Shown here one piece after another: positions 233-62,085 of a stretch of 64,000 nucleotides of DNA; the first letter of the stretch is position 1, and every line of letters starts with the position of its first letter. Both the position numbers and the translations under genes were made by a program. Source of the DNA: Anas platyrhynchos (lineage: Eukaryota; Chordata; Aves; Anseriformes; Anatidae); assembly GCF_047663525.1 (NCBI RefSeq), contig NC_092612.1, forward strand, positions 715,501-779,500, read 5' to 3'. Under the pieces are notes generated by a model. It worked only from the letters and a program-made list of their open reading frames with translations, was not told where the DNA came from and ran no database searches.

Positions 233-1003
233 TGTCCTTCCTCATGCCCACGTCGAGGCACTTCTGGAGGCGGCACGCCTGGCACTGCCGCCGCTTGGCC
301 TTGGTGACCGGGCAGCTCCGGGCGAAGGGACAGGTGAAGTGGACGCCCTTATTGATGGACCTCCTGGGGGGACAGGGGACACGGGGACAGGGCTGGCACC
401 GTGCCCCCAGGGTGGCAGGCAAGGCTCAGGAGCCCCCCGCAGGGGCCACCCCTCCATGGGGTCACCGTCACCGCCGTGTCCTGGAGAAGCCGGGTGGCTC
501 CAGCACGGGGGGGGAGCATCCAACATCTGTCCCCTCCTGTCCCACCCCATCCCCGGCTGTCCCCTCCTGTCCCATTTGTCCCCATGCGCCCTGACCTGTC
601 CCATACACTCCCCTCCTGTCCTGTCCCCAATGTCCCATCCCATCCTGTCCCACCTCGTGCCCTCCTGTCCCTTCCTATCCGGACTCATCCCATATTCTCC
701 ATCCCCCTTTTGTCCTGCCCCAATGTCCCCTCCTGTCCTGCCCCGCTGTCCCACCCTGTCCCCCTCCTGCCCTGCCCCTCATCCCACCCCGTCCCCTCCC
801 GCGCCCCCCCCGCGGTGGCAGCACCTGAAGAAGCCCTTGCAGCCCTCGCAGGTCATGACGTGGAAGTGGTAGCCGGTGGCACGGTCCCCACACACGGCGC
901 ACACCTTCTCCTCCTCGGGCTCCCCGTCCTCCCTCTCGGTGACCTGGGGACCCCGCTGCGTGCCGGGGCTGCTCTCCGGGTCCGAGGGGCTCGACACGGA
1001 CAT
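233..1003 (-). CDS. NR1I3: NR1I3 (CAR/CXR) nuclear receptor, first two coding exons only
   Basis: Xenobiotic-sensing nuclear receptor that binds DNA in the nucleus and induces detoxification genes. Two coding exons are visible: 825-1003 (59 codons plus 2 nt) and 233-363. The chosen start (1003) gives [12 protein letters not shown] and an acidic N-terminus, then the first zinc module [20 protein letters not shown] with the P-box CEGCKGFFR. The second exon continues [19 protein letters not shown] and the second zinc module ending [14 protein letters not shown]. The splice phase joins FFR|RSIN exactly. The YHF variant and the KGVHF loop fit CAR/PXR rather than VDR, and the PCP4L1-MPZ-SDHC neighbourhood is that of human NR1I3. 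Birds are known to carry one CAR/PXR-like receptor (CXR). The hinge and ligand-binding exons lie beyond the left edge. The N-terminal start is less certain than the DNA-binding domain. Confidence 0.88.
545..790. repeat. CT-rich minisatellite in NR1I3 intron
   Basis: Degenerate tandem repeats of a TGTCCC/CATCCC theme fill most of the intron between the two zinc-module exons (364-824). Long overlapping open frames here on both strands are repeat artefacts. Confidence 0.75.
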
Positions 1004-4429: not shown

Positions 4430-4435
4430 TTTATT
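4430..4435 (-). terminator. MPZ: MPZ polyadenylation signal
   Basis: AATAAA on the minus strand (TTTATT on plus), about 600 bases after the second, read-through stop of MPZ. Confidence 0.65.
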
Positions 4436-5032: not shown

Positions 5033-5227
5033 TCACTTGTCCGAGTTGGGCTTGAGGATGCTCCGCAGGGCGCTGCCGAGACCCCCCCTGCTCGGCGAGG
5101 GGGTGGCCTCGGGGGTCTCCCCCCGCAGCTCCATCTCGATGGTCATCACCACTTTGGGGGCGCGGGGGGCCCCGGTGTCACCCCCCGCTGCCACCGCGGC
5201 GGCGGCACCTTCCCTGCCCGCTAACCG
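5033..5227 (-). CDS. MPZ: L-MPZ read-through extension of MPZ
   Basis: Directly after the MPZ stop (TAG then CGG) the same frame stays open for 64 codons (5036-5227) and ends at TGA (5033-5035). The translated tail starts RLAGREG, contains PKVVMTIEMELR and a SPSR element, and ends KPNSDK. Mammalian P0 is known to make a minor L-MPZ isoform by translational read-through, with an extension of about the same length. As I remember it, that tail also starts RLAGR, contains an IEMELR block and SPSR, and ends NSDK. An Ala-rich run near the start is the least conserved part. I read this as a true coding extension, not 3' UTR, because similarity in chance sequence would not be expected. Confidence 0.82.
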   Translation of the reverse strand, partial: RLAGREGAAAAVAAGGDTGAPRAPKVVMTIEMELRGETPEATPSPSRGGLGSALRSILKPNSDK

Positions 5228-7546
5228 CTATTTCTTGTCCTTGCGGGACTCGCCCGCGGCTCCCTTGGCTTTCTTCTCGCTCGCCGCCTTGGTGCTGCGG
5301 CTGTGGTCCAGCATCGCGTAGAGCACGGGGGCCTGCGGGGAGGGGGGGGTGTCATCGTCGCCCCCTTTTTGCTCCCCAGCACCCCAAAAAGTTGGAAATC
5401 CCCAAATCGCTGCCTTGGGTTTAACATCCCCCTCCCTTGGGTGCTCACCTGGCGGCTGCGCTTGGAGGCGTCCTTGGCCGATCGCTGCAGCTTCCCCTTC
5501 TCCATGGCACTGAAACGGGGCAGGAAAGGGAGAAAATAAAATAAAATAATAAAATAAAATAAAATAAAATAAAATAAATAAAATAAAATAAATAAAAATA
5601 ATAAAGTAAAGTAAAATAAAATAAAATAAAGTAAAATAAAGTAAAGTAAAATAAAATAAAATAAAATAAAATAAAATAAAATAAAATAAAATAAAATAAA
5701 ATAAAATAAAATAAAATAAAATAAAATAAAATAAAATAAAATAAAGTAAAATAATAAAATAAAATAAAAAATAAATAAATAAAATAAAATTTAAAAAAGG
5801 CAGCTCTGACGGGACAGCAGCCCCCACAGAGCCGTTTTGGGGTTTTTTTACCCCAAATCGGGGTGGGGTCTCACCTGAGCCGCCGCTGCAGCACCGCCTG
5901 CCTGCGCAGCCAGCAGTAGCGCACGAGGTAGACGAGGGCGACCACCAGGAGCACCAGCAGCAGGGCACCGCCGATGATGGAGCCCAGCACCACGCCGTAC
6001 CGGGTGGGCACTGCGGGGGCACCCCGTCAGCGTCCCCCCCCCAAAGGGGGGGGTCAGTACAGGGCGTAAGGGGGGGGACACCGGGGGTCAGGGCAGGGCA
6101 TAAGGGGGAGGAGGGGGGACCCCGTGCGCCCCGTACCTTTCTCGAGGACGTAGAGCGTGACCTGGGAGGATTTGCCCACGATGTCGGGGGGGTTCTTGAC
6201 GTCGCAGGTGAAGGTGCCGTTGTCGGTGTAGTCCAGGTTGTGGATGACGATGGAGCCGTCCTTGCGCCGGGGGTTGCCCACCCACTCCATGCGCTCCTTG
6301 AAGGTGCCCACGTCATCGATGTAGGGCTGCCCCTTGGCGAAGTGAAATATCTGGGGGGGGGGGAGAAAAAAGGAGGATGGGGGACATGCAAAGGGTCGTG
6401 GGGGGGCTCTGGGCGCAGCGGGAACCCCCCCGGGGACCCGTCCCGGAGGGGGGGGCTTACGGAGATGCTGTCGCGGGAGCCCTCGGCCTGGAAGTGCCAG
6501 GTGATGGAGATGTCCTCGGAGATCCACTCGCTGGACCAGAAGCTGCAGGACAGGGTGACGTGGGAGCCCACGGTGCCGTACACCTCCCGCGGCGTGTACA
6601 CGTGGATGGCCCACGTGGGAGACAGCCCTGGGGGGGGGCACAGAGCCCTCAGCACCGCGGGGACACCGGCACGGTGCCGGTACCCGTCCCCGGGGCTAGG
6701 AGGAGGTGACAACGGTGGCTTCTCTGCACCCCCGTGCCAAATCCCTGGGTGCCACCAAAGGGCTTTTGTTGGCCACGGAGGGTGCACAAGGGTTGGTGGG
6801 GGGCTCTGGGGGGGGCTGGACCCCCTCTGCCCATGCCCATTTCTCATCCCCGTGGAGGCGACCAGGGCGGTGACGGTGACCGGAGGATGGTGGCACCCCC
6901 GTGGACACGGCCACCAGTGCTGGGGCTGTCCTACCAGCACCGTGACGGTGACCGGGGGATGGTGGCACCCCGGTGGCACCCCCATGGACACGGCCACCAG
7001 TGCTGGGGCTGTCCCCACAGCACCGTGAGGGTGACCAGGGGACGGTGGCACCCCGGTGGCACCCCGGTGGCACCCCCATGGACACAGCCACCAGTGCTGG
7101 GGTTGTCCTCACCACAGCACCATGATGGTGACCAGGGGATGGTGGCACCCCGGTGGCACCCCCGTGGCCACCGGTGCTGGGGCTGGGGCTGTCCTCACAG
7201 AGCTGTGATGGCAACCGGGGGACAGTGGCACCCCAGTGGCACCCTGGTGGCACCCCCGTGGCCACGGCCACCGGTGTTGGGGCTGTCCTCACAGCACCAT
7301 GACGGCAACTGGGGGACAGTGGCATCCCGGTGGCACCCCCATGGACACGGCCACCGGTGCTGGAGTTGTCCTCACCACAGCACCATGATGGTGACCAGGG
7401 GACGGTGGCACCCCCATGGACACGGTCACCGGCGACACCAAAGCACCGGCCGCGTCCCCCCCCCCTGCCCGTCCCGGCTTACCCAGCCCGGCGAGGAGCC
7501 CAGCGAGGACCAGGAGGCTCCGGTTGTCCCCGGCACCTTGCGACAT
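5228..7546 (-). CDS. MPZ: MPZ, myelin protein P0
   Basis: Single-pass adhesion protein that compacts peripheral nerve myelin in Schwann cells. Six exons: 7483-7546, 6461-6627, 6137-6350, 5875-6010, 5449-5509, 5228-5332; 248 residues, exactly the human length. Residues 1-29 are a signal peptide; then one V-type Ig domain (IHVYTPREVYG start, core Cys in VTLSCSFWSSEW and NGTFTCDVKN). The NGTF sequon is the conserved P0 glycosylation site. A transmembrane helix follows PTRYGVVLG, then the basic tail with WLRRQAVLQRRLSAMEKGKL and PVLYAMLDHSRSTKAASEKK, ending KDKK. The canonical stop is TAG at 5228-5230; an open extension follows (separate entry). Introns hold a large pentanucleotide repeat and a minisatellite. 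It is head-to-head with SDHC. Confidence 0.97.
5530..5795. repeat. (AAAAT)n microsatellite in MPZ intron 4
   Basis: About 260 bases of nearly pure TAAAA/AAAAT pentanucleotide, with a few AAAGT and tetranucleotide interruptions, lying about 80 bases downstream of the exon 4 donor and ending about 20 bases before the exon 5 acceptor. It is the strongest AT-rich block in the window. Confidence 0.97.
6880..7440. repeat. 80-100 bp minisatellite in MPZ intron 1
   Basis: At least six tandem copies. The marker CCACCRGTGCTGGGG recurs near 6911, 6994, 7088, 7168, 7268 and 7351, so the period is about 80-100 bases. Each copy also contains a short GGTGGCACCCC sub-repeat that varies in number and accounts for the length differences. 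Confidence 0.9.
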
Positions 7547-14900: not shown

Positions 14901-15061
14901 TGGGTCTGTCCGTGTCCCCCTGCCTTAACTCTGCTCTGTTTCTTCTCTCCCTGCAGGCGTGGGACCTGGGGAAGGGCTTCAAGCTCAGCCAGGTGCAGCA
15001 GTCCGGGGTGCTGGTCCTGATCTTGACCCTGCTCTCCTCGGCGGGCCTCGCGGCCCTGTGA
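8924..15061 (+). CDS. SDHC: SDHC, succinate dehydrogenase cytochrome b560 subunit
   Basis: Membrane anchor of mitochondrial complex II: with SDHD it holds heme b and the ubiquinone site and passes electrons from succinate. Six exons: 8924-8943, 11382-11438, 11697-11798, 12372-12433, 13522-13685, 14957-15061; 169 residues, equal to human. The first exon is only 20 nt (MAALAL then split R). A targeting presequence is followed by [16 protein letters not shown]. Family signatures are intact: [19 protein letters not shown] with HRGTG, and [16 protein letters not shown], which includes the heme-ligand histidine region. Three transmembrane segments are visible: [33 protein letters not shown] and [19 protein letters not shown]. 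No anomaly in any splice site. Confidence 0.97.
8944..11381 (+). other. SDHC intron 1
   Basis: 2.4 kb intron with more balanced base composition than the flanks. It contains a short A-rich tract (9990-10020) and a (TTAA)n cluster at 10950-11008. Short open frames have no recognisable similarity. Confidence 0.7.
10950..11008. repeat. (TTAA)n cluster in SDHC intron 1
   Basis: Three runs of TTAATTAA separated by near-identical spacers (CCAGGGAGA, GCTGGGAGG). The spacers suggest a local duplication of a roughly 25-base unit. Confidence 0.85.
12434..14956 (+). other. SDHC introns 4 and 5
   Basis: Introns 12434-13521 and 13686-14956. Ordinary unique-looking sequence; several open frames, none with codon pattern or similarity I can support. 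No RNA gene or repeat family recognised. Confidence 0.6.
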
Positions 15062-15743
15062 AGGCTCCTCCTGCTCGACGCCTCCCCCTTTTTGGAAGCT
15101 TTGTTCCGTCCTGGCCCACCGGGGGATGCACGAGGAGAGGGAGGCGGGGAGGGGGGACAGAACTAGAAGCCTTTGGGGGCAGGGGGGGGCTTCCCCTGCT
15201 CACGAATCTCGTGGATGGATAATCAGAGTTGCTTTTTCTTAGCCCAGACCAAGCGCTGCGCCCAGCTGCCTGCCTCGTTGTGACGGGGTGATGGGGACAC
15301 AGGAGGAGGGGGCTCGGGGCCTGAGAGCTGCCCGACTTCACCCGAGCAAACTCCAGGGCGTTTCTTTTCTCTGCCCTGTCCCCAAGCTCGGGACAATGCG
15401 GGATCTGTGTCCCTGTGGCTCCGAGTGGGCTCGGGGAGGCCGGCAGCTCGCGTGTAGGCTCGGCGCAGGACAACCGGCCGCATTGAGGGCAGCCCCGTGC
15501 CAGGGGAGGGAGAGCGGGCACCGCTGCCAACGCCAGCACCCTGCGCTGCCCGGCTGCCACCGTCCCAACTCCTTGCCGTTGAAATTGTCCCAATCCAGCC
15601 AGATTTGGGGCTCTGGAGCCCCTGCCACGTCCAGTTTTCCCCTGGGGAAGTTGCTCCGTCAGCGGCGCACCTGGCAGGGCTCTGATTTTCCCGGCGCGTC
15701 GCCGGCGGCCGTGGGCTCAGCGCTTCTTCCTTGCCCACCTTGC

Positions 15744-20962: not shown

Positions 20963-23900
20963 TTACAGAGCCGGGCAGGCGACCTGGTGCCGGATGCCGT
21001 CGTTGCACATGAGGGCAGCCGCCCGCTCGTCGCCGTCGCCGTGCTGGCACTGCATGTAGCTGATGCCGTGGGGCGAGTAGCTGTGGTGGGCGCACACGTT
21101 GCAGGCGCGGGTCATGGTGCCCCCCGTGCTGCTCCTGCGGATGGTGGCAGAGGGGAGCCCCCCCCCGCCGGGCACCCATCAGCACCCGCTGCTGCTCGCC
21201 AGGGCTGGTGCCACCCCTTGGTGCCCCCCCATGATCCCCCCCAGCACCCTGCTGGCTGCCACCAGTGCCACCCAAAAGCACCCTTTGGTGCTCGTCGGTG
21301 CCTGTTAGCACCCATCCGAGCCTGCTGGCACCCACCCGTGCCCCTCAGCCCCCCCCCGTGTCTGGTGGCACCCACAGGTGACCCGTGGTGGCCATCGGTG
21401 CCTGGTGGCACCAGCGATGTCCACGGGTCCCCAGATGCACCCATGGTTCCCAGCCGTCCCCAGCACTTCCCAGTGGCACCCATGGGACCCTGCTGGCGCC
21501 CACCCTTGTCCCCGCGCCCCCTCACCTGCAGTCGCTGCAGGTCCGCTGGCACTCCTTGCGGCGGTAGCGGCAGATGAGGGCCCAGATGAGGAGCCCCAGG
21601 AGGCTGAGGAGCAGCAGCGAGCCCAGGATGGAGCCCACGATGATGCCCGCCTGCCTTCCGCCTCCTGCCGCAGGAGCACAGCCTGTCACCGCCGGCCTCT
21701 CCACCGGCTGTCCCCACGGCACCGCACCGCCGGTGGCATCCCGGTGCATGGAACCAGCCCCCCCCCCCCCCGGCAGAGCCCCCTCCCCATGTTTCCCCCC
21801 CCCCATGGTGGCACTTACTTTGTGAGAGGCCGAGGTTGATCTGGCACACGGCGTAGCCCACGCGGTTGGTGACGCGGCACTGGTAGACGCCAGCGTGCAC
21901 CTCGGACAGGCTACGGATCAGAAGGTCGCCAGGAGCACGTCCTGCGGGGGAGACAGGGACATGGGGACATGGGGACATGGGGACGCAGGGACACACACAG
22001 CCATGGGTGCACACAGACACGTGCAGACACGTGTGTACATGGATGTGCACGGCTGCAGCCAGATATGGGCAGGGTGCACACGGACACAGGCACACAGGGA
22101 CAGGGAGCACAGGGACATGGGGACACGGGGACACAGGGACACGGCTGCACATGGATGTGGGCACCTGAGGACACAGACACGCATGGACACGGAGCCTCGG
22201 GGACATGGGCGCACACAGACATGGGCACACGGGTGTTGGAGCACACGGGAGTGGGAGCACACGGATGTGGGGGCACACGGATGGGGGCGAACACAGGCGC
22301 ACATGGACACGGCAGCCATGCACACGGGCACCCAGACAATCACGTATGTGCGTGGACACCCATGGACATGCGTGCACCCGGACACGGGATCACACAAACT
22401 CAGGTGTGCATGCGGCCATGGATGCACACGCACATGGACACGGACACGGATGCACACGCACACGGATGGACACGGACACGGGAACACACAGCCATGAGCA
22501 CCCATGGATGCAGACCCCCAGCCAGACACCCCCTCCCCAACTCACTCAGGACCCCCCCCTCCCCACTCAGAGCCCCCAGCACCCACCTTGGAGGGTCCCA
22601 TGGGGCAGGCGGCCCCCGCCGTATCCATCAGCCAGCTTGGCCCACTGGTAGGCGAGCGGCGAGGCCCCCCCTCGGCTGTAGCAGCGCAGCAGGACGCTGC
22701 TCCCCTCGATCAGCTCCCCCTCGGTCCAACACTGCGGGGTGGCCGGCTTCTCTGCGGGGCAAGGGACACCGTCACCGCCGGGAGCACCGGGAGCACCGGG
22801 GGGGTCAGGGCTCCCGCCACCGTCGGGGAAGGGTCCGGGGGGCTCACCTTGCACGGTGACGATGACCTCGTGCACCGCCACGGTGTTTTTCTTCACCCGG
22901 CACTGGTAGGTGCCGGTGTCGGAGACCTGCAGGTCGGCCAGGCGGATGGAGGCGTCGTGCTGCCCCGGGTCGTTCTGCACGAAGGCCACCCTGTCCTGCA
23001 GCCCCGAGCCGCTGCCGTAGTTGACGTGGTGGTCGTGGTAGGACAGGAACTGGGGGGGGGGACACGCAGAGGTGAGGACGGGCAGGGGGAACCCCCTGAG
23101 GGGGTAGAAAAGGGGAGGGAACGGCGCTGCCTGCTCCTGCCCTGCCTGCTCCTGCCCTGCCTGCTCCTCGCACGATGCAGCTGCAGCCCTGCCTGTCCTG
23201 CCTGGTCCTCCCCTGCTCTGCCAGACCCTGCCTGCCCTGCCTGTCCTGCTTGTCCCTGCCTTTCCTGCTCGTCCCCGAATGTCCTGGATCTTCCTGAATG
23301 CCTGCTCCATCCCTCCATCTTTTTCCATCTTTCCTACCCCATCTCGCTTTATCCATCTCTCCAGCTCCATCCTTCCTCCTCCAGCTCTCCTCCACCCCTC
23401 CTGCCCCATCCCTCTTCCATCCCTCCTGCCCCAGCTCTCCTCCATCCCTCCATCTCCATCCCTTCTCCTCCCCTCCTGCTCCATCCCTCCAGCTCCATCC
23501 TTCCTCCTCCAGCTCTCCTCCACCCCTCCTGCTCCATCCCTCCTGCTCCATCCCTCCTTCCCCAGCTCTCCTCCATCCCTCCATCTCCATCCCTTCTCCT
23601 CCCCTCCTGCCCCATCCCTCCTGCCCTCCGCACCCCCGTGGGATGGGGGCAGCAGCCGAACATCCCCACCCGGAGCCGGAGCCCTCCGTGGCCGGGGGTC
23701 ACTCACCACATTCTCTGGGCCGGTCCGCTCGGGCGTGATCTGGATCCACTCGATCCCCACGCCCTGGGGACCGTTGTCTTCAGGCTCGAGGACGTAGGGG
23801 CAGCCCAGCTTCACGGAGTCACCCTTGGCCAGGTACAGAACCTCCCGGCCCTTGCTGTTGATCCTTACGGCCAGGAGGAGAGCTGGGGAGAGAAAGGCAC

Positions 23901-26916: not shown

Positions 26917-29900
26917 CTAAGCAGACCCCAGCTCTCCCACTGCCGGCGGGGCAGCGCTCTGCTCCTTGCTCTGCTCCTCGCTCTGCTCCCCGTGGGGCTG
27001 AGCCTGCCCGGGGGCTGCGCCTGCCCGGTTCAAGGCCCTCCGCTCCACCTGGGCGCAGTACTTCTCGGGGATGCCGGCGGCTCTGCGGAGGAAAGAAAAC
27101 CTCAGGCACCCTGTGCCACGCCAGGACCACGGCCTCGGAGCAGGGTCCGTTTGGAGGGGACGGAGAGGATCCAGCGGGGTGGTGGTTCAGGGGGTCGGGG
27201 CACGGTGGGAAGTGGGGACGGGATTTGGGGACGTGTGGGGAAGCGGGGAGCGAGCAGGCGCTGATGGAGCAGCACCTGAGCTCCTGCATCTTCTTCTCCT
27301 TGAGCTCGGTGATGCGCTGGCTGCGCCGCCGGGCCTCCTCCTGCAGCCGCTGGAACTCCTCGAAGGCGGCCGCCCGCTCCTGCGCCCGCCGCTGCCGCCA
27401 CTCCTGCATCTGGCGCCGGACGTCGCCGGCGTGGGCGCGCTGCAGGGCCGCCTTCCGCGCCGCCTCTGCCTTCTCCTTCTCCATCTGCTCCTGCTGGGCC
27501 CTGCGGGCGAGAAGCCCCCTTCCTCCTGTGCTCCGCTCACCCACCCGCGTGGGCTTTTTGGCACCCCCGCGCCCCCTTGCCATCACCACCTGAGGATGCG
27601 CTCGAACTCGTCGCGGTCCTGCTGCACCTGCACGCCCATGCGGTGCTCCCGCGCGGCGATCTGATCCAGGCGGCTCCGCTTCAGCTGCTCCTCCAGCTCG
27701 GCTTTCCGCCGCGCCGCCTCCTGCTCCTTGCGCCTCCACTCCCGCTCGGCCGCCTCCTGGCTGCGCTTGGCCCGCAGCGCGTCCTGCCCGGGGGGACAGC
27801 GGTGACATTGGGGGGACCGAAAGGGTTGGGAGGACTCCACCGTGGTTCTGTTGTTCGCTCCAGGAGCTGCAGGGACCCTGTAGAGCCCCCACCTCCATCT
27901 CCAACCTCGCTGTGGTGGTGTCGGGGAGGGGAGGCAGCGCGGTGGCACCCCACACAGCGGCTCACCTGCTCTGCCCGGTGGTCCTGGGCCCTTTCTTGCA
28001 TGGCCCTCAAGCGCGCCGTCTCCTTCTCCTTCTCCTGACGGATCCTCTCCTGCTCAGCTTCAAATTCGGCCTCCCGCTCCTACTTGGGACACAGCCTCGG
28101 GGCAGCTCCTGGGGTGCCCCTACCGAGCCCCTGCCCGTGCCGTGTCCCACTACCATCTTCTGCTTCTGGTACTCGAGTATCTTCTCGTCTGCCAGCCTCT
28201 CCTGCCGCAGCTGCTCCTCCTTGTACCTCTGGTTCTCGTCATTGATGCGTTTGATCTCTGCCTGGATTTTCTTCTGTTGCTCCTGCCTCCGCTCCAAGTC
28301 CTGCGAGCGGGGCCGAGGGGCTGAGGGGCGGTGGGACCAGAGCCTCCCCTTGGGGGGAGGAGGGCTCCATGGCTTGGGGTTATTTTTGAGGATGTTTCAG
28401 CCTCTCCAAGAGACCAGGGCCTTAATTCTGCCGCCTGTTGTCTCCCCACCCCGGGTCTCAACACCCTTCCAGCAAGGTGAGGGATCTCCCTCCAGCCCCC
28501 CGTGCCCCCCCAGATGTTTTCTGCCCGCTGACCTTCTGGTCCTCCAGCTTCAGCTGCTCCAGGTGCTGCAGCATCTCCCGCGTCTCCTGGTCCCGCTGCT
28601 CGGCTCGCAGCGCCCGCTCCTCCGCGTTCTTCTCTATCTGCTTTACCAGCTCCTGCCTCCCCCTGCAAGGAGAGGTCCCCCCCCGGCTCAGCCCTGTGCC
28701 CTGGAGCGGTGACACCGGTGTGGATGGCAGGAGGGGGGCCTGGGGGTGCTGAGCTGCAGTGTGGGGCTGGTGGACAGCACAGAAACACCAAATTGTAGGG
28801 GTTGGAAGGAACCTCGAGGTCCAAACCCCTGCCAAAGCGGGTTCCCTAGAGCAGGTTGCCCAGGGAGGCGTCCAGACGGGTCTCAAATATCTCCAGAGGA
28901 GACCCCACAACCTCCCTGGGCAGCCTGTCCCAGTGCTCCATCACCCTTACTGGGAAGAAGTTGGTGAGGAACTCCCTGGGCCCCATTTTGTGGCCATTGC
29001 CCCTTGTCCTGTCCCCACAGAGCACTGAAAGAGGTTGGCCAAACCCCTCTGCCTCCCACCCCTCAGGTATTTTTACGCATTGAGGAGATCCCCTCTCAGT
29101 CTCCTCTTCCCCAGGCTGACCAGACCCAGGTCCCTCAGCCTCTCCTCACAGGGGATGCTCCAGGCTCCGGATCACCTTTGTGGCCTCTTCCCCCAATCCT
29201 TTTTGCTCCAGGTGAGGAGCTCCCGGTGCCGGCACGAGGTGAGGGCCCCCCCTGCTCGCCTGATCAGCTCCTGCTTCCTCCGGCGCTCCAGCTCCTCCTG
29301 CATCTCGTTGGCCTTCTGCCTCTCCACCTCCATCATCTCGGCCAGCCGCCTCTCCTCCTCCTCCAGCTCCTTCGCCACCAGCTGCTTCTCCAGGATCTGC
29401 GTGTCGCGCACCATGTGGCACTTGGCCCCGAGGATCAGCTGCGGGGACAACAGCTCTGCGTGGGACAGACGGACGGAGGGACAGACAGACAGACAGATGG
29501 ACAAAAATGGACATGGAAGAGGGAAGGAGGGGACGACCCCGGGCGGCACCACGCGGAGCAGGGCGCAGGGCTCGTCCTGGCCGTGCCGTGGGGTGGTTGG
29601 GGAGGGTCTGGGGGCACCCCCGTTGCCTCTCCACATTGGGTGCGTGCGGTGCTGGGGGCGGACGGGCAGCTCGCGGCCGCACCTCGCTGAACTCCTTGAT
29701 CTCGTCCTCCTGCTCCATGCGCATCCTGCTCGCCCGCTGCAGCAGGTGCTGGGCCCGCTCCTTCGCCTCCTCCTCCAGGTCGCTCAGTTTGCCCTTCTGC
29801 TGCTGCAGCGCGGCTCGCTGCTTCGCCGCCGCCTTGCGCTCGCTCACCGCCTCCTGCGGGGGACAGGGGGGCGAGCTGAGACCCTCCCGTGCCCCTCTGG

Positions 29901-41635: not shown

Positions 41636-43607
41636 TTAGAGCAGCGTGGCCAGCTCGCAGCCCTCACCGCAGCCCCCGCGCCCCCCCGGCCTCTGCCGCC
41701 GCCGCTGCTGGGCCCCCTCCCTGCGCCGCCCGTGCTGGGGGGGGCCACCTGCCCCCCCCAGCGCCTCCGCCGACACCGAGGTCACCGGCGAGGAGCCGCC
41801 GCCACCGGGCTCTGCGGGGAGAGAGGCAGCGTCCGGCCCCCGAGCGACACCCCCAGGGTGCCCCCCCCCCCCAAAAAACCCTACCGGGGGCACCGCGGTG
41901 CCTCGAGGCCCCCCCTGTCCCCAAAAGGTGGCCGGGGGGGGATGCGATAATAGGGGGGGGGTCGCACTCACGCTGCTGCTGCCGCTCGAGGTCCCGGAGG
42001 GCGATGGTGGAGAGGGGCCGGGGGGGGGCTCCGGCGCGGTAGAGCTGGAGGGCGGCCAGGAGGTCGGAGGCCAGCGTCACCTCCGCGTCCCACTCGTAGC
42101 TCTCGTCCACCGAGGTGTCCCTCCTGGGGGGGTTACAAGCGTTAAGGGGGGGGTCCCATCACCCGCCACCCCCCCCCCCATGGCACGCTGTCACCCCCCC
42201 GTGTCCCCAAGGAGCGCATCCTCACCTCTTCCCCGCGCCGCTCAGGGCTGGCTCCGTGCTCACCTTGCCCTCCTGCCAGCTGCCCCCCTCCCCCGGGGGG
42301 GTACCGGGGCCGGGCCCCCCCAGGGATGGTGCCAAGGAGGGGGGGCGCAGGAAGGAAGCGCTGCCCCGGCCGCTGCTCTGGCTGGTCAAGCTGCCCCGTG
42401 GCAACTTCTCCGGGGGGGGCACATCCCCAGTTTCAGTCCTGCTGCCGGGGGGGGCACCACGGTGGGTCGGTTCCTGGGGGGGCGGCCAGGTGGGGGGGCC
42501 AGGCAGCGAGGCTTTGGAAGGGCCCAGGGGCAGCTTGGGGGGCTGCAGGAGGGTGGCAGCGGGGGGGGCCGCGGCCTTGGCACATGGGTCCGTGCAGTCC
42601 GGCCCCCCCCCGGGGTGCTGGGGGGGAGCGGGGGGCTGCTGCGGGGGGTCCTCGGGGGGGGGCCAGTCTCCGTCCACGCACATCTCCTTAAAGAAGGGCA
42701 GGCTCAGGTACTGCAGGATGCCGCTCGGGGCCGGGGGGGCCGCGGCAGGCTGGGGGCTGGCGGCGGCGGCCGGGGTGGGGGGGCCCTGGAGGGGCAGCGA
42801 GTCCCAGCGGGTGCTGGGGGGGCCGGGGCTGTAAGGCAGAGTGGCGGCGGAGGCCACGGGGCTGACGTCGACGATGCACAGGGCGGCCGCTTCGGGCACG
42901 GGGCTGCTGCTGCCGTAGCCGAAATAACGGCCCCGGCGGCGGCCGGAGGGTGCGGGGGGGTCCCCGGGGGGCCGGGGCCGTAACGCCACCCCCTGGTGCC
43001 AAACGGGCTCCTTCTCCTCTTCCTCCTCCTCCTCCTCTTCCTCCTCCTCCGGTTGGGGTCCCCTGGGTGTCGGGGGGTCCCGGGGCGGGGGGGCGAAGGC
43101 GCTCTCCTTCTGGGTGGTCTCCACCACGAAGCGGCCGTCGGGGCCGCGGCGGATGCGCTCCAGGGGGCCGGGGTCCCCCCCGTGCTCCCCGAGGTGGCTC
43201 TCGTAGACGGCGTAGCCGGATCCGGCCCCGGCGATGCTGAGCCCCAGGCTGGTGCCGGCTTTTTCGCCCCAAAGCAGCGCCCGGCGCAGGCTGGGGCAGG
43301 GGGAGGGCTGCAGCTTCAGCTTGGTCGCCACACCGGCCGGGCTACCAGCGCCGTGAGAAGGGCTGGAAGGAAACGGGCAACGGCTGTGGGATCCCCGTAG
43401 CGGCTCGTTTGGACCCCCCCCATAATTAGGGGGCTCACATTGGGCAGCCCCCGGGCGGTGCCGTGCCCTGCGGGACGTGGCAGCACTGCTCTGGGTGCTC
43501 CCTGCTTGCTTGCTTTGGCCACGAGCCCCCCCCCCGAGGGGAAAGCAGAGCACCCATGGGTGCCCCGAGCCCGGCCCCGCTCCCAGCTCCTGCCCCAAGC
43601 CAGCGGA

Positions 43608-43640
<33 letters not shown>

Positions 43641-46600
43641 GGGGGGGCGGGAGTGTGGGGTGGCGCGACTTACTGCGGAGCAGGGAGCTTCTGGCTGGGG
43701 GAGAAGACGAGCGGTGGATCTGGAAGGTGATGAGAACACACGGGGGTCGCACGGCGAGCGACGCATGGCGATGAGGAGGAGACGAGAGGAGAGGAAGGAG
43801 ATGGCAGCCCCCCCCCTGCAGCCCCCCTGGCTCGAGCCCCCCCCGGGAGGCGCTGGCTCCTACCTTGCCTTCGCTTCTGGATGCGCGCGGCGCGCCGGCG
43901 GTTCATGATGCAGGCAGCCACGGTGCTGAAGATGACGGCCACGCTGAGGAAGCAGATCCCACCGATGACCCCGGCCAGCACCGGCTGCGGGAGCAGCTCG
44001 GGGAGCTGGGTGCGGGATGGGTACACCTCCATGCCTGCGCCGGATGGGAGACGGAGCTGGGGCACCCGCTCAGCACCCCAGAGCAGCCTCCAGCGCCTTG
44101 AGGGCACCACAAACGGGATGGCAAAGCCTCGGGGGGCTGCAGGGGGACCTGCCCCCCAGGGTGCTGGCAGTGGGGACACCAGGCAAGGCTCCCCTGCCAC
44201 CCAAAACCAAAGCCACACAAGAGATGTGCATGGGGATGAGCGCTCCCGCAGTGCCTGATTCTCAGGATGCAGTCCCCGGTCTAGTTTTGGGGCTGGAACC
44301 CCAAAAAGGGGATTTTCATTTAGGGCAAACTCCCTCCCTCCCTCGGTTCCTGCCTCCCAGCTGGAGGAGCGGGCGGGCGCAGCGCAGCCCCTACCTGCCG
44401 TGGAGACGTTCACCGTGTTGCTGGGGTCGCTGATGTAGCTGCCCGCGAAGGCCACCAGGCGGAACTCATAGAAGGCGTCCTGGGGGGGGCGAGCACAGCA
44501 CCATCAGCCTCACCCCCTCCTCCCTGCGTCCCCGCAGAGACCCCCAACCCCTCCCCGACCACGCAGCACCGCACCTTGATGAGCCCTGGCACCAGCACCT
44601 GGCTCTCCGTGCCGGGGATGGAGCGCTCCAGCACCTCCCAGCCGCCCTTGTCCTGCCGCAGCTCCAGGGCGTAGCCGCTCAGCGCCACCGAGAGCTGGGC
44701 CGGGGGCTCCCAGCGCAGCAGGACCCCCCGCGACGTCTCGTTGGCGCTCAGGGCCTGCGGCGGGGACAGGAAGACGTGCACGGTCATGGCCGGTGGCTCC
44801 GGAGGCACTGTGGTCACTGGGAAGCCTGGGGAGAAAGGGGACGCTGGCACGGGCGGCTGGGGAGGGAGAGCGGGGTGGAAACCGGAGCTTTGGGGGAGTT
44901 TTGGGGGGCTTCGAGGCACCCTGCTCTTACCCCTGGGCACGGAGGTGACGATCTGGCTGAAGGGACCGCTGCCCAGTTTGTTCTGGGCCAGGACACTGAA
45001 CTGGTAGCTGGTGTCCGGCTGCAGGTTCTCCACCAAGAGGTGCTGAGCCCCCGGCGGCACCGAGAGGGACACCCAGTCGTGGTGGGCGCGGGGCGGGTGC
45101 TTCGCCCTGTGGGGACGGGGGGGAGCCCTGAGCCTGCGGCCGAGGGACGCCGAGGGGCTGGGGGCCACCCGGTGCCACCCCTCCAACCCCCAGGGGGGGA
45201 CTCACAGCGGCGTGTACCAGACGCTGAACCTCTGGAAGTAGCCCCCATCAAAGCCGGGCTCCCAGGAGATGTTGGCCGCCAGCAGCAGCGGCAGCACCGA
45301 GACGTTGGTGACAGCGTGGGGACTGGTCCCTGGCACCCAAAGAGGAGAGAAACCACATGGGACGGGGGCAGCTCGGATAACCAAACCCCGGGAGCGTTTC
45401 CAAACCTTCCCCCCCCCCCAATTTTCAGGGCTCGGCACCCACCGCCGCCGCCCCCACCACTCACCCAGGACGTGGACCGAGGTGGCGGTGCTGACGCTGG
45501 CCACCGGGTTGGTGGCCGTGCACTCCCAGCGCCCGTGCTGCTCCTTGACGAGGGGGCGGAAAACCAGGCTGCCGTTCCCATCCACCTGGGCACCAATCTG
45601 CCCTGCGCTGCCCACCTGTGGGGCAGGGAGACCCTGATCGTGCTGATACCCCCATCCCAATCCCTTGTCCCCTTCCCCATCCCAATCCCTTGTCCCCATC
45701 CCAATCCCTTGTCCCCATCCCCATCCCCGGTCCCCATCCCAATCCCCTGTCCCCATCCCAATCCTCTGTCCCCATCCCCAGCGCCTCCGCAGTGACCCCA
45801 CAGCCCCCAGACCCTCGCAGGACCTTGATCCACCCCCCCGGGGCCGATTTGGACACAGAGGGGCAGGATTTTGTCCTCGTTTCCTAAAAAAACAAAGGTG
45901 ACACGAGCAAAACTCCCCTCCTGTGGGACCCCAGGGCTTCCTGCGGGGACAAGGACCCGGGGACTACCCACGCGATGATGTCCCAGGACACCCAGTGTGC
46001 TCCTCACCTTCCCCCAGGTGATGGTGGGTGGGGGGTCCCCGTGGGCCGCGCAGGGGACCACCAGCTCCCGGCCCACCTCCTGGAAGTATTCCTCCTTGGG
46101 GCGCACGGTGAAGGCGGGGGGGTCCTGCAAGAGCCACGCACGGTGCTGGGGACGGTGGCGGGGACACGGGACACCGGAGTGTTGTGTCCCCTGTCCCCCC
46201 CCCAGTCTGTCCCCACCTTGAGCAGGACACGGGTGGGCCGGGAGGCGCCGGCGGTGCCGTAGCTGTTGTAGGGGGTGCACGTGTACACCCCCAGCGCGTC
46301 GTCGTTCCCCGTGGCGATGACGATGGAGCCATCGGGTCGCGCCGACCAGCCGGGGAGCTGGTGGGAAGGGCGTGGGGGTGATTTCGGGGGGCTGTGGGGT
46401 GCAGGTGAGGGGGTGGGGGGGCTGTGGGTGGTCGTACCTTGCCCAGCTCCAGCGGGCGCCCGTCCCGCGTCCAGCTGACGGAGAGCAGGGGGGGGTTGGC
46501 CCTGGTGGGGCACCGGATCACGCCCCGCATCCCCTTGGGCAAATGGGTCTCCGGGAGCATGGTGGTCACCTGCGCCGGATCTGGGGGGGACACGTGGGGT

Positions 46601-49600: not shown

Positions 49601-50676
49601 CCCTCCGTCCCCACCACTGAGCCTGGTGGCAGCGCCCTGGGGTGCTGGTGGCACCGTCGGGGACACGGCTGGGGGCTGGCGGGACGCGGGGAGGGCGCAG
49701 CAGGATGGGGCCGAGCCCTTTGTGCCGGGGGGAAACCTGAGATCCCGCAGGTAACGGGAGCCGGGGGGCCCCCGGGAGGCAGGTGCCGAGGGTTTGGTGT
49801 CACCGTGAGGTTTGGTGTCACCGCCGATCCCACGGAGCCACCCGGAAAGGTGCTGGCAGTGGGGAGCACCCCAAAATTGCTCCTGCCCCGTGCTGGCGGC
49901 TCCTTCCTCACCCCTACCTGTGGCCGGGCTCCACCTGCGGCACATTTTTTGGGCAGTTTCGGCCGCCGAGGCCGGATCCCGTCAGACCGGGCCCCCCCCC
50001 AATTTGGCCCCGAGCACCCGGTGGGGGCGAGGAGCGGCCTCCCACGCCGCGGCCCCGCTTGGCCCCGAATCCCGGCCCCACCGAGTGGCTTCACCCAAAT
50101 CCCTTCCCCGAGCACGGCTCGCTCGGCCGAGGGGTGCAGGGTGGGGGATCCATCCCGAGCGGGGTGCCCGGTGCTCCCGGTGCTCCCGGTGCCACTCACC
50201 GAGGTACTCGGGGTCGACGCGGGGCGAGTAGAGGCCGAACTTGATGAAGATGGGGAGGACGAAGCCGACGCGCACCCACTCGATGACGTAGAGCGGCGGG
50301 CGGCTCTGGCGGGCACCCAGCAGGTCGCAGCCCAGCACCGCGCTGTCCCCGACGCGGCCCACCACGGCCCCGCTCGGCCCGCTGCCTGCACGGGGCACCG
50401 GGAGCACCGGGAACACCAGTAACACCAGTAACACCAGTGGCACCGGTAACACCGGTGGCACTGGGAGCACGGGTGGCACCGCGCCCCCTCCTCCCATCCC
50501 ATCCCGTCCATCCCATCCCTTCCCATCCCATCCATCCCATCCCGTCTCACCCTGTCTGGTCCCATCCCAGTCCCCGGTTCCCATTCCGGTTCCCGGTCCC
50601 GGTTCCCGGTGCCCTTACCCTCAGCCCCGGTGCCGGCGAGCAGGCTGAGGAAGGCCGCACGTAGCCACCACCGCAT
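41636..50676 (-). CDS. IGSF9: IGSF9 (Dasm1/Turtle homolog), neural adhesion protein
   Basis: Type I membrane Ig/fibronectin adhesion protein acting in dendrites and inhibitory synapses. Twenty exons: 50619-50676, 50200-50385, 47919-48071, 47506-47657, 47230-47347, 46989-47130, 46658-46803, 46438-46580, 46217-46357, 46008-46124, 45465-45615, 45206-45329, 44931-45106, 44575-44825, 44395-44479, 43864-44034, 43674-43719, 42226-43362, 41972-42123, 41636-41811. All phases close; 1274 residues (human 1179). Signal peptide MRWWLRAAFLSLLAG, five Ig domains (CDLLGARQSRPPLYVIEWVR; WYECRVLFLD; TYTCHASS; YTCVASN; YTCTPYNS; WECTATN), two FN3 domains (GFDGGYFQRFSVWYTP; LVPGLIKDAFYEFRLVAF), transmembrane LAGVIGGICFLSVAVIFS, and a Pro-rich tail with LQYLSLPFFKEM and RGSLTSQSSGRGSASFLRPP. 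It ends ATLL, the same C-terminus as human, a likely PDZ ligand. Exon 18 encodes a long Glu run. Confidence 0.95.
43018..43062. repeat. IGSF9: Coding GAG/GAA microsatellite in IGSF9 exon 18
   Basis: Tandem CTC/TTC on plus, encoding about a dozen consecutive Glu in the cytoplasmic tail. It is absent from human IGSF9 as I recall it, and likely to vary in length. Confidence 0.9.
43609..43640. repeat. (ATG)n microsatellite in IGSF9 intron 17
   Basis: About ten perfect GAT/ATG trinucleotides, 35 bases from the exon 17 donor. Confidence 0.95.
45655..45790. repeat. CCCATCCCAATCCCTTGTCC minisatellite in IGSF9 intron 10
   Basis: About seven copies of a roughly 18-20 base unit. Confidence 0.92.
48072..50199 (-). 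other. IGSF9 intron 2
   Basis: The largest IGSF9 intron, 2.1 kb. It contains a short GATGAGGAGGA tract at 48415-48440 and otherwise unique GC-rich sequence. No exon with Ig similarity seen. Confidence 0.65.
50395..50600. repeat. Two microsatellite-like arrays in IGSF9 intron 1
   Basis: (CACCGGTAACACCAGTAA)-type units at 50395-50475 are followed by CCATCCCATCCCGTC units at 50490-50600. Confidence 0.88.
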
Positions 50677-56115: not shown

Positions 56116-57106
56116 TCACCCCTTGAGGTACACCTTGCCGTGGATCTTGTAGGGCAAATTCCTCCAGCCGAAGATGGGGGCGGGCAAGGGGCTGTTGTAC
56201 ATGGCGGCCCCCACCTCCCCGGTGGTCAGCTCCCTGTCCCACATGTAGACGTCCGAGATCTCCCCCACGAAGGAGTGACGGGCTTTGAAACCCCCCCCGA
56301 AGGCGTCCTGCTCCTGCCCCAGCAGGATCACGGCCTCGGCACCCACCACGTAGTCCTTCTGCAGCCCCTTGCGGGGCCAGGCCTTCCCGTTGAGCCAGAA
56401 GCGCACGATGCCGGTGGGGGACTCCCAGCTGGCGCAGACGTGCTCGCTCCCCAAAAAGCTCTCGGGGACGCGGAAGGTGACGGACTTGCCCCCCACGTGG
56501 AAGCGGTACTCGGTGGGCTTGGGCTTGAAGAGGAGGATCTCGTCGTCCTGCGTCTCGGTGGCGTAGGAGAAGAGGCTGTGGGGCCGCGTGAGGTCCGTGT
56601 AGGAGCGCAGGCACACGGTGAAGTTGAGCAGCGGCTGCTCCGGCTTCGCCCGCAGCACCACGTAGGAGTCCTTGGTCTCCCACGGGAACACGAACACTTG
56701 GTTCACCAGGTCTGGGAGAGGGGACAAAGAGGGGGCTGCTCCTGGCACCAGGATGGCATCCGGCCAGATCCCCCTGGGGGGAACGGGGTCGTGAAGTGCC
56801 AGCAAGGAGGGCACCGCCAGACCCCGGGGTGGCCTCCACCACCAGAAAAAGGGCGACGTCCACCACCAAACCCAAGGGTGGCCTCCACCACCAGATCTAG
56901 AGGTGGCCTCTGCCATCAGACCTCAGGGTGGCCTCCACCGGCGTTGCATCCCCGCTGCCTTCCCCCCCTGCTGCACCCTCCACCCCTTCCCCTCTCCCCG
57001 TGGGACCCGGGGGGGCTCCTGATGCAGCCCCTCTACCCCTACCTTCCAGGGCAGCGAGGCCGAAGAGCCCTACAAGGACGAGGAGGCAGAGCTGCGGTGT
57101 CCCCAT
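56116..57106 (-). CDS. Short pentraxin A (CRP/SAP type)
   Basis: Secreted calcium-dependent pattern-recognition protein that normally forms pentamers. Two exons, 57043-57106 and 56116-56711, phase 1 junction as in CRP/APCS; 219 residues. Signal peptide MGTPQLCLLVLVGLFGLAAL, then NQVFVFPWETKDSYVVL. The pentraxin signature HxCxSWxS is present (HVCASWES), as are FTVCLRSYTDL and GQEQDAFGGGF. By CRP numbering the calcium ligands Asp60, Glu138, Gln139 and Asp140 are kept, but 61 is Asp, 147 is Lys and 150 is His, so the second calcium site looks lost. The C-terminus IHGKVYLKG is shorter than CRP. FVGEISDVYMWD is closer to SAP, but a one-to-one name is not safe. Tandem with pentraxin B. Confidence 0.93.
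56810..56945. repeat. GGTGGCCTCCACCACCAGA repeat in pentraxin A intron
   Basis: Four or five diverged copies of a unit of about 33-35 bases. Confidence 0.85.
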
Positions 57107-57796: not shown

Positions 57797-58763
57797 TCAG
57801 CGCCCCAGAACCTCCCGGAGCCGCGGTTTCACCACCACGTCCCCCTTGGTTTCGTAGCTCAAGCTCCTCCAGGCCAGCAGGGCGGGCGGCAGGCGCAGGG
57901 ACTGGTAGGCGGCTCGCATCTTGTCTGGGGACAGCCCCGTGTCCCACAGGTGGACGTCGGCCAGCTCGCCCGTGAAGGAGTTGTAGACGTCGAAGCCCCC
58001 CCCGAAGGCGTCCTGCTCCTGCCCCAGCATGATCACGGCCTCGGCGCCCACCGCGTAGCCCCGCTGCAGCCCCTTGCGGGGCCAGGGCTTCCCGTTGAGC
58101 CAAAATTCGGCGATGCCGGTGGCCGACTCCCAGCTGGCGCAGACGTGCTCCCAGTCCCCGCGGCTCTCGGGGACGCGGAAGGTGACGGACTTGCCCCCCA
58201 CGTAGAAGCGGTACTCGGTGGGTTTGGGCTTGAAGAGGAGGATCTCATTGTCCTGCGCCTTGGTGGCGTAGGAGAAGAGGCTGTGGGGCCGCGTGAGGTC
58301 CGTGTAGGAGCGCAGGCACACGGTGAAGTTGAGCAGCGGCTGCTCCAGCTTCGCCCGCAGCACCACGTAGGCATCGCTGGGGTCGGTCCGAAAAACGAAC
58401 ACCTTTCGGTAGAGGTCTGGGGGGAGGGTGACAGAAGGGATGCGGTGGTCTCAGAGCCTACCCCCCCTGGGGGATGTCCCCGCTGTGCCTTTGGTGCTCC
58501 AGCATCCCCCAAAAGGCTCCCAGAGCTGGCTGGGGGCATCGGACGGGGCTGAGCCACCGTGGTGTCCCCAGGGATGGGGATCTGGATGGGACCCCCCTTG
58601 GCTGCCCCCCCCCCCCCCGCCATGCTCCCACACCCCAGGGCTCTTCGCTCCCTGCTCCTCACCCCGCTGCCAGCCCTGGTCCCCCCGCTGTCCCCCTACC
58701 TTCCTGGGCGGTGACACCACTGAGGCCAGCGAGGACGGCGAGCCACAGCCGCAGGCTGCCCAT
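57797..58763 (-). CDS. Short pentraxin B (CRP/SAP type)
   Basis: Second secreted short pentraxin, same orientation as A and 0.7 kb away. Exons 58700-58763 and 57797-58416, phase 1; 227 residues. Signal peptide MGSLRLWLAVLAGLSGVTAQ, then YRKVFVFRTDPSDAYVVL. Signature HVCASWES and GQEQDAFGGGF are present. Calcium ligands by CRP numbering: Asp60, Asn61, Glu138, Gln139, Asp140 kept; 147 is Asp (conservative) and 150 is Asn, so calcium binding is plausible. QDNEILLF keeps the CRP phosphocholine-pocket Phe66. The C-terminal part (GELADVHLWDTGLSPDKM to KPRLREVLGR) differs strongly from A, whereas the central part is almost identical at the DNA level. Of the two, this is the better CRP-function candidate. 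Confidence 0.93.
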
Positions 58764-60586: not shown

Positions 60587-62085
60587 TCAGAAGCCGCCGT
60601 CAGCGTCCACCTTGCGGTGGCAGAGCCCGGTGGCCAGCAGCACGGCGGGCGCCAGGCAGCAGTGCAGCACCCCCAGCGCCTCGCACAGCCCCAGGGCGTA
60701 ATCAAACCTCTCGAAGATGCTGCAGGTGTACCGCAGCACCTCGGCGTACAGGAGGAAATCCACGGCCAGCCCCACGCCGTAGGGCACCCAGAGCACGAAG
60801 AAAAGCCAACTCGCTCCAAGCCCGGACCCCCAGCCCCCTCCTCGCCCTGCGCGGACCAGTGTGGCCACCAGCAGCGTGGCCGGCAGCAGCAGGAAGACGC
60901 AGAGGCACGAAGCCAGGTGCAGCAGGTAGACGGGCGAGAAGACGTCGACGTTTCGGTGGATGCAGCTCGCCTCCGGAGCCGCCACCGTGCCGCCGGCGAG
61001 CGCGGCCGGCACGGCCAGCAGCAGCGCCCCGAGCCAGATGCATGCAGCCAGGCGCTGGCTGCGGGGCTCCCAGTGGCTCCAGATGCCGCTGCAGCACCCG
61101 CTGGCCACCAGCAGCCCCTGGGCGAAGACGCTGCAGTGCCACAGCAGCTGGGTGACCTTGCAAGCCCCCGCGCCCAGCCGCCAGCCCTGCACGATGCCTG
61201 CCGCCACCGCCGGCAGCAGCGCGGCGAAGAGCCCGGTCGCCACCGCCAGCTGGGCCACCAGGGCTCGGTGGCACGGCCACGCGTGGGGACGCTTGGCCAA
61301 GGCCACCAGCAGCGCGCCGGTGGCCAGGGCGGCGGCGACGCAGGTGGTGGCCAGGAAAGCGGGGGCTGCGCGCTGGAAGAAGGGGCAGTAGGCGTTGTGG
61401 CAGGGCTCGGAGGAGGAGTAGTCCATCAGGTAGTCCTCGTCGGTGGTGAAGTTGCCCAGGAGGTCCATCAGGTCCACGAAGGTTTCGTTCTGCAGGACTT
61501 TGGGGCTCTGAGGAGGAGATCGGGGGGGTGTCAGGTGCCCCCACGGCTGAGGGATGGCACCTGAAATGTCCCCTCTGATGGCCGGGGGGGGTTTGTCCTG
61601 CTCTGGAGCTGCCACCCAAGTGTGTGTGGCGACGGCTGGCGCATCCGCCTGCGGCATTTATCGGGGAGGGACACCCTGGGTGCAGGGGTCTGCCCAGTGC
61701 TGATACCTCGGGGCTGTGGGCTTGGCCACAAGGTGCAGGAAAACCCAAATTTCCTTACAGCCTCCGAGGTTGGTGCAAAGCCAATGGTGCTGTCTGTAAG
61801 TGAGCATTTCCCAGCTCCGAGACTCAGCACCCGGCACCCACCAGGGCTGGGGGAGATGGGCAGGGGCACTGGGGGTGCTGGGAGGTGCTGGGGCAGTGCA
61901 GGAAGGGAAAAGCTCAGCAGACGTGGGGAAAAGCTGGAAGCGGGCTCACCTCGAGATGCTTCTCTTTGAAATTCAGAGAAAACCACCCGCTCCGAGCACC
62001 CGGCAGGATGGGAAAGGGGTGGAAGGGGGGCGGGGGAAGCAGCGGGGCAGGGAGAAGCACTCACCACTGGGATGCAGTTGCCCAT
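60587..62085 (-). CDS. ACKR1: ACKR1 (Duffy antigen/DARC), atypical chemokine receptor
   Basis: Seven-transmembrane chemokine scavenger of red cells and venular endothelium that does not signal through G proteins. Two exons: 62065-62085 (MGNCIPV, matching the short human first exon MGNC...) and 60587-61507; 313 residues (human 336). The acidic N-terminus has an NETF sequon, DLLGNFTTDEDYLMDY (possible sulfotyrosines) and CHNAYCPFF. Seven hydrophobic helices can be followed to VLHCCLAPAVLLATG. The DRY motif is missing after TM3 (region ASGCCSGIWSHW), which is the hallmark of ACKR1. A longer open frame running through the intron to 61657 is not the start. Its place next to the pentraxins and the presumed CADM3 fits human 1q23. 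Confidence 0.93.

What the first reader, a model, noticed from the sequence alone, without database searches (positions are those of the whole stretch)
5033..5230. Avian MPZ keeps the L-MPZ stop-codon read-through tail
Seen: after the MPZ TAG the same frame is open for exactly 64 codons to TGA, beginning RLAGREG, with PKVVMTIEMELR, SPSR and a terminal NSDK. Known: mammalian P0 makes a minor longer isoform by translational read-through, with a tail of about this length. Inference: the tail is under protein-level selection and read-through is at least as old as the bird-mammal ancestor. The nucleotide after the stop is C (TAG CGG), and the start of the tail is the best conserved part.
Basis: partly seen in the sequence, partly recalled or inferred. 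Interest (0 to 1): 0.85.

Follow-up and report, generated by a model that had tools for sequence, protein, structure and literature searches.

The report
Bird myelin P0 stop-codon read-through tail
Just past its stop codon, the main nerve-myelin gene in this (probably bird) genome carries the extra protein tail already reported as the L-MPZ read-through form from frogs to humans, so this looks like another copy of a known feature.

Summary
MPZ lies on the minus strand; its TAG is at 5230-5228 and the same frame runs 64 codons to TGA at 5035-5033. The open length alone means little: 627 of 1913 stop-to-stop runs in the window are as long, and four simulations give P 0.44-0.61. Two other results support a coding tail. 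It resembles the mammalian L-MPZ tail, which I recalled and did not fetch (local score 98; best of 5000 shuffles 63). Codons 23-64 also show the third-position G+C bias of MPZ, fading after the TGA. Codons 1-22 lack that bias, and only codons 1-5 among them match the recalled tail well, so 'the start is the best conserved part' fails beyond five codons. The likeliest mechanism is UAG read-through making an L-MPZ form; read-through itself was not shown here. The age claim is not new: papers report conservation from frog to human. An open point: the tail lacks two of three minimal PKC motifs of the recalled mammalian tail. No relatives were reachable, so dN/dS was not computed. New member of a known kind.

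The parts
5228..7546 (-). MPZ (myelin protein P0) coding exons, 248 aa: 7546-7483, 6627-6461, 6350-6137, 6010-5875, 5509-5449, 5332-5228 (last codon TAG)
   Evidence: GT donors and AG acceptors at the junctions; Pfam Myelin-PO_C 65 of 65 positions, V-set 2-109 of 109; myelin P0 chains are the best PDB sequence hits, E 1.7e-68
5228..5230 (-). MPZ stop codon TAG, followed by CGG
   Evidence: the mouse canonical stop is also TAG (PMC7070019 passage)
5213..5227 (-). Tail codons 1-5, RLAGR: likely stop-codon context
   Evidence: 5 of 5 identical to the recalled mammalian tail; role as recoding context is inferred
5162..5212 (-). Tail codons 6-22, Ala/Gly-rich linker, diverged
   Evidence: 2 of 17 identical to the recalled tail; codons 1-22 lack coding periodicity, D -0.07, permutation P 0.87
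5036..5161 (-). Tail codons 23-64, core APKVVMTIEMELR...SPSR...NSDK
   Evidence: 25 of 42 identical to the recalled tail; G+C at codon positions 0.595/0.548/0.952, 0 of 20000 within-codon permutations as periodic
5033..5035 (-). TGA that ends the tail
4430..4435 (-). AATAAA, candidate MPZ poly(A) signal about 600 bases past the tail
   Evidence: Only AATAAA on the minus strand in 5227-3300; a pattern match, not tested

Best explanation
This is the L-MPZ C-terminal extension in another vertebrate, most likely a bird. A minor share of ribosomes most likely decodes the leaky UAG-C stop of MPZ with a near-cognate tRNA and adds one residue at the UAG plus 64 more to P0. Selection appears to have kept the 42-residue C-terminal core and the five codons after the stop, while the Ala/Gly-rich linker between them drifted. 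Shown here: the sequence, the gene model, the codon signature of the core, and likeness to a recalled mammalian tail. Inferred from published mammalian and frog work: that read-through happens in this animal and that the product goes to peripheral myelin.
For: MPZ identity. Same stop (TAG) as mouse. Tail of 64 codons, pI 9.7, 6.4 kDa against 63 residues, pI about 10, about 6.7 kDa in PMC7070019. Local score 98 to the recalled tail; 5000 shuffles mean 25.4, sd 4.8, maximum 63; the five other frames of the same DNA 21-32; best score elsewhere in a 7980-window scan 47. Core periodicity 0 of 20000 permutations. A C after a stop marks a weak stop (PMC4132726 passage). [quoted passage not shown]
Against: The mammalian comparison rests on a sequence from memory. 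No dN/dS, no expression data. The whole tail is only at the 5.4% level among stop-free windows, and 168 of 9808 windows elsewhere match the core's periodicity. Codons 1-22 show no coding signature. No significant RNA structure after the stop. Two minimal PKC motifs of the recalled tail are missing.
Confidence: 0.85

Rival explanations
1. The tail is a fossil: the ancestor read through, but this lineage no longer does and the tail is decaying.
For: The linker has diverged (2 of 17) and lacks coding periodicity; two minimal PKC motifs of the recalled tail are absent.
Against: The frame is intact to the NSDK end although the alignment to the recalled tail needs four gaps, and the core's codon signature is about as strong as that of canonical MPZ.
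Confidence: 0.06
2. The tail is translated, but through splicing that removes the stop rather than by read-through.
For: Exon 5 ends on a whole codon, and the AG of the TAG itself is in phase with the tail; in-phase AGs also lie inside the core.
Against: The 20 bases before the AG at the TAG are only 30% pyrimidine; the four AGs between the stop and the core are out of phase for an exon 5 donor. Splicing to the TAG would remove the conserved end of P0. Donors inside exon 6 were not scored.
Confidence: 0.03
3. The UAG is edited to UGG (adenosine to inosine), so a Trp codon replaces the stop.
For: UAG is, from recall, a favoured triplet for ADAR enzymes; nothing in the calls points to editing.
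Against: The A of the stop is predicted unpaired (probability 0.0) in three local folds of different size; published work attributes the mammalian product to read-through.
Confidence: 0.02
4. The open frame is chance in a G+C-rich 3' UTR and its likeness to L-MPZ reflects RNA-level constraint.
For: An open run of 64 codons is expected with P 0.33-0.61; one of four folded segments (5033-5182) is mildly more stable than shuffles, z -1.72, 9 of 200.
Against: Third-position bias of the core and frame-specific likeness to the recalled protein tail (98 against 21-32 in the other frames).
Confidence: 0.04

Closest known systems
L-MPZ, the read-through isoform of myelin protein zero in mammals and frog (PMC7070019, PMC4973966, passages read; Yamaguchi 2012 and Yamaguchi and Baba 2018 not held)
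   Same: Same gene, same TAG stop as mouse, in-frame extension of about the same length, basic character, and the same core motifs as in the recalled mammalian tail.
   Different: 64 rather than 63 residues; a divergent Ala/Gly-rich linker; lacks two of three minimal PKC motifs found in the recalled tail. Read-through not shown here.
UGA-CUAG read-through genes OPRK1, OPRL1, MAPK10, AQP4 (PMC4132726, passages read)
   Same: Vertebrate gene with a C after the stop and a conserved in-frame extension.
   Different: The stop context is UAG-CGG here and UGA-CUAG there.

Membership tests
L-MPZ (read-through isoform of MPZ) | The gene is MPZ, with an Ig V-set domain and the P0 cytoplasmic domain | tested here: met
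L-MPZ (read-through isoform of MPZ) | Canonical stop TAG with an in-frame extension of about 63 residues | tested here: met
   TAG at 5230-5228 and 64 codons; 63 residues and TAG in mouse. An open run of this length is itself common here
L-MPZ (read-through isoform of MPZ) | Extension similar in sequence to the mammalian one | tested here: met
   Local score 98 against at most 63 in 5000 shuffles, but against a mammalian sequence recalled from memory
L-MPZ (read-through isoform of MPZ) | Extension under protein-level constraint | tested here: inconclusive
   Codon periodicity in codons 23-64, none in 1-22; whole tail at 5.4% of 4780 windows; no relatives for dN/dS
L-MPZ (read-through isoform of MPZ) | PKC phosphorylation site in the extension (reported for mammals) | tested here: inconclusive
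   Only one [ST]x[RK] motif, the terminal SDK; the serine used in mouse was not in the passages read
L-MPZ (read-through isoform of MPZ) | The extended protein is made in peripheral nerve | not testable with these tools
   Needs protein or ribosome data
UGA-CUAG read-through class | UGA stop followed by CUAG | tested here: not met
   The context is TAG CGG

The most novel reading that the evidence does not exclude
The L-MPZ tail is a two-part device: a five-codon recoding context at the stop and a selected 42-residue effector core, joined by a free linker; and in this lineage the core works without the PKC site to which the mammalian function has been tied.
Probability: 0.25. Interest if true: 0.4.

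Novelty: new member of a known kind. Interest (0 to 1): 0.25.

Why it matters
It adds a probable bird sequence to a known vertebrate read-through gene; mice made to produce only L-MPZ show a Charcot-Marie-Tooth-like neuropathy (PMC7070019 abstract), and a 2020 review calls the isoform's function unknown (PMC7465998 passage). The split of the tail into a stop context, a free linker and a coding core says where to look for function and gives a definite prediction for dN/dS along the tail.

Tried and rejected
Relatives of the tail: Pfam 0 families, PDB sequences 0, own genome 1 match, itself, prokaryote genomes 592 pattern matches and 0 confirmed, viral contigs 262 and 0. So dN/dS was not possible. 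I did not search the phage, plasmid or E. coli collections.

RNA structure as a stimulator: four segments folded, z -1.43, 0.17, -0.75 and -1.72; not supported. Splicing around the stop and editing: disfavoured, not excluded. Open length as evidence: rejected. Whole-tail periodicity as evidence: weak, 5.4% of 4780 windows; the division at codon 22/23 was set where the recalled alignment's conserved core begins, before its G+C was seen.

Literature: all 10 searches used. MPZ + 'stop codon readthrough' + chicken gave 3 papers; in PMC7070019 'chicken' occurs only as antibodies, in PMC4359377 MPZ occurs only in a reference, and PMC5868278 was not opened. 'myelin protein zero' + readthrough + birds: 0 papers. 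Tail peptides: 0 papers. 'UAG CGG' with readthrough and stem-loop: 0 papers. One search was too broad to tell anything. Yamaguchi and Baba 2018, Yamaguchi 2012 and Rajput 2019 are not held, nor PMC113845; whether birds were among the species tested in 2018 is unknown to me. Structure prediction was not run.

Full report
Observation. MPZ lies on the minus strand at 7546-5228, in six coding exons with GT donors and AG acceptors, and encodes 248 residues. The protein matches Pfam Myelin-PO_C over 65 of 65 profile positions and V-set over 2-109 of 109; myelin P0 chains are the best PDB sequence hits (E 1.7e-68). The stop is TAG at 5230-5228. The frame then reads CGG TTA GCG and stays open for 64 codons to TGA at 5035-5033.

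Is it more than chance? The length is not: 627 of 1913 stop-to-stop runs in the window reach 64 codons, and Markov sequences modelled on four local stretches stay open that long with P 0.44, 0.61, 0.58 and 0.49. Two other lines were tested.

First, likeness. I aligned the tail with the mammalian L-MPZ extension as I remember it; no call supplied that sequence, and a text search for four of its fragments found 0 papers. As a partial check, the recalled tail has 63 residues, pI 10.1 and 6.85 kDa, while PMC7070019 gives 63 residues, pI about 10 and about 6.7 kDa (passages). The local score is 98. Shuffles of the tail (5000) average 25.4, sd 4.8, maximum 63; the five other frames of the same DNA score 21 to 32; in a scan of 7980 windows the five best scores (91 to 51) lie at this place and the next is 47. 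Identical residues are 5 of 5 in codons 1-5, 2 of 17 in codons 6-22 and 25 of 42 in codons 23-64.

Second, a coding signature that needs no relatives. Canonical MPZ has G+C 0.594/0.448/0.940 at codon positions 1/2/3. Over the whole tail the third-position excess is 0.23; 0.015% of within-codon permutations reach it, but 5.4% of 4780 stop-free 64-codon windows of like G+C elsewhere in the 64 kb do so too, real exons included. Divided where the recalled alignment's core begins, codons 23-64 have 0.595/0.548/0.952 (excess 0.38; 0 of 20000 permutations) and codons 1-22 have 0.864/0.818/0.773 (no excess; P 0.87). In 20-codon steps the excess is high in exon 6, falls away after the TAG, returns over the core and fades after the TGA. 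Among 9808 stop-free 42-codon windows of like G+C outside MPZ, 168 reach the core's value; they fall in 26 clusters. I scanned against Pfam all 21 minus-strand open frames of those clusters and 4 of the 10 plus-strand ones; the 4 plus-strand frames had no match. By my own reading of coordinates, a listed Pfam stretch overlaps 17 of the 26 clusters; four of these (at 44935, 47225, 47890 and 60605) rest on weak matches. Nine clusters have no such support. So about 1.7% of windows reach this value, and more than half of the clusters lie on recognisable exons.

Reading. The tail looks like a mosaic: a five-codon start that may serve as stop context, a free Ala/Gly-rich linker, and a coding-like 42-residue core ending in NSDK. 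The statement that the start is the best conserved part holds for five codons only.

Mechanism. The likeliest is ribosomal read-through of UAG, as published for L-MPZ (PMC7070019; PMC4973966; passages read). PMC4132726 says that a stop followed by C is weak (passage). No significant downstream RNA structure was found in four folded segments, the strongest being z -1.72 with 9 of 200 shuffles as stable. For splicing from exon 5, the AG at the TAG is in phase but follows purine-rich sequence, and the four AGs between the stop and the core are out of phase; in-phase AGs inside the core exist, and donors inside exon 6 were not scored. Editing of UAG to UGG is not excluded; the A is predicted unpaired in three folds.

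What is known. [quoted passage not shown] its abstract says 'in tetrapods'. [quoted passage not shown] The inference 'at least as old as the bird-mammal ancestor' is therefore covered in print. I could not see whether birds themselves were tested, because the 2012 and 2018 papers are not held.

Possible difference. The mammalian extension is reported to carry a PKC site. The recalled mammalian tail has three [ST]x[RK] motifs, SAK, SLK and SDK; this tail has only the terminal SDK. The motif is loose, the mammalian half is recalled, and the serine used in mouse was not named in the passages read: a lead only.

Not done: dN/dS, since no other vertebrate sequence was reachable; any test of expression or of read-through.

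Noticed in passing
5533-5790: An AAAAT pentanucleotide array (about 53 copies, 88% matches) lies in the MPZ intron between coding exons 4 and 5; on the MPZ strand it reads ATTTT.
   Followed up: no
6889-7414: A minisatellite with units of about 83 or 180 bases fills part of the first MPZ intron.
   Followed up: no
237-365 and 821-904, minus strand: Two exons of a nuclear-receptor zinc finger (zf-C4) lie next to MPZ; NR1I3, its neighbour in mammals, is a name from recall and was not tested.
   Followed up: partly
56119-56922 and 57800-58450, minus strand: Two pentraxin-domain open frames side by side (E 4.6e-70 and 2.8e-76).
   Followed up: no
14935-15105, 20975-21175, 21525-21665, 29665-29836, 43095-43220, 46205-46330, 50165-50365, 61070-61196, 61325-61465: Nine clusters as codon-periodic as the tail core, without an overlapping Pfam stretch; some may be exons without a Pfam domain.
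   Followed up: partly
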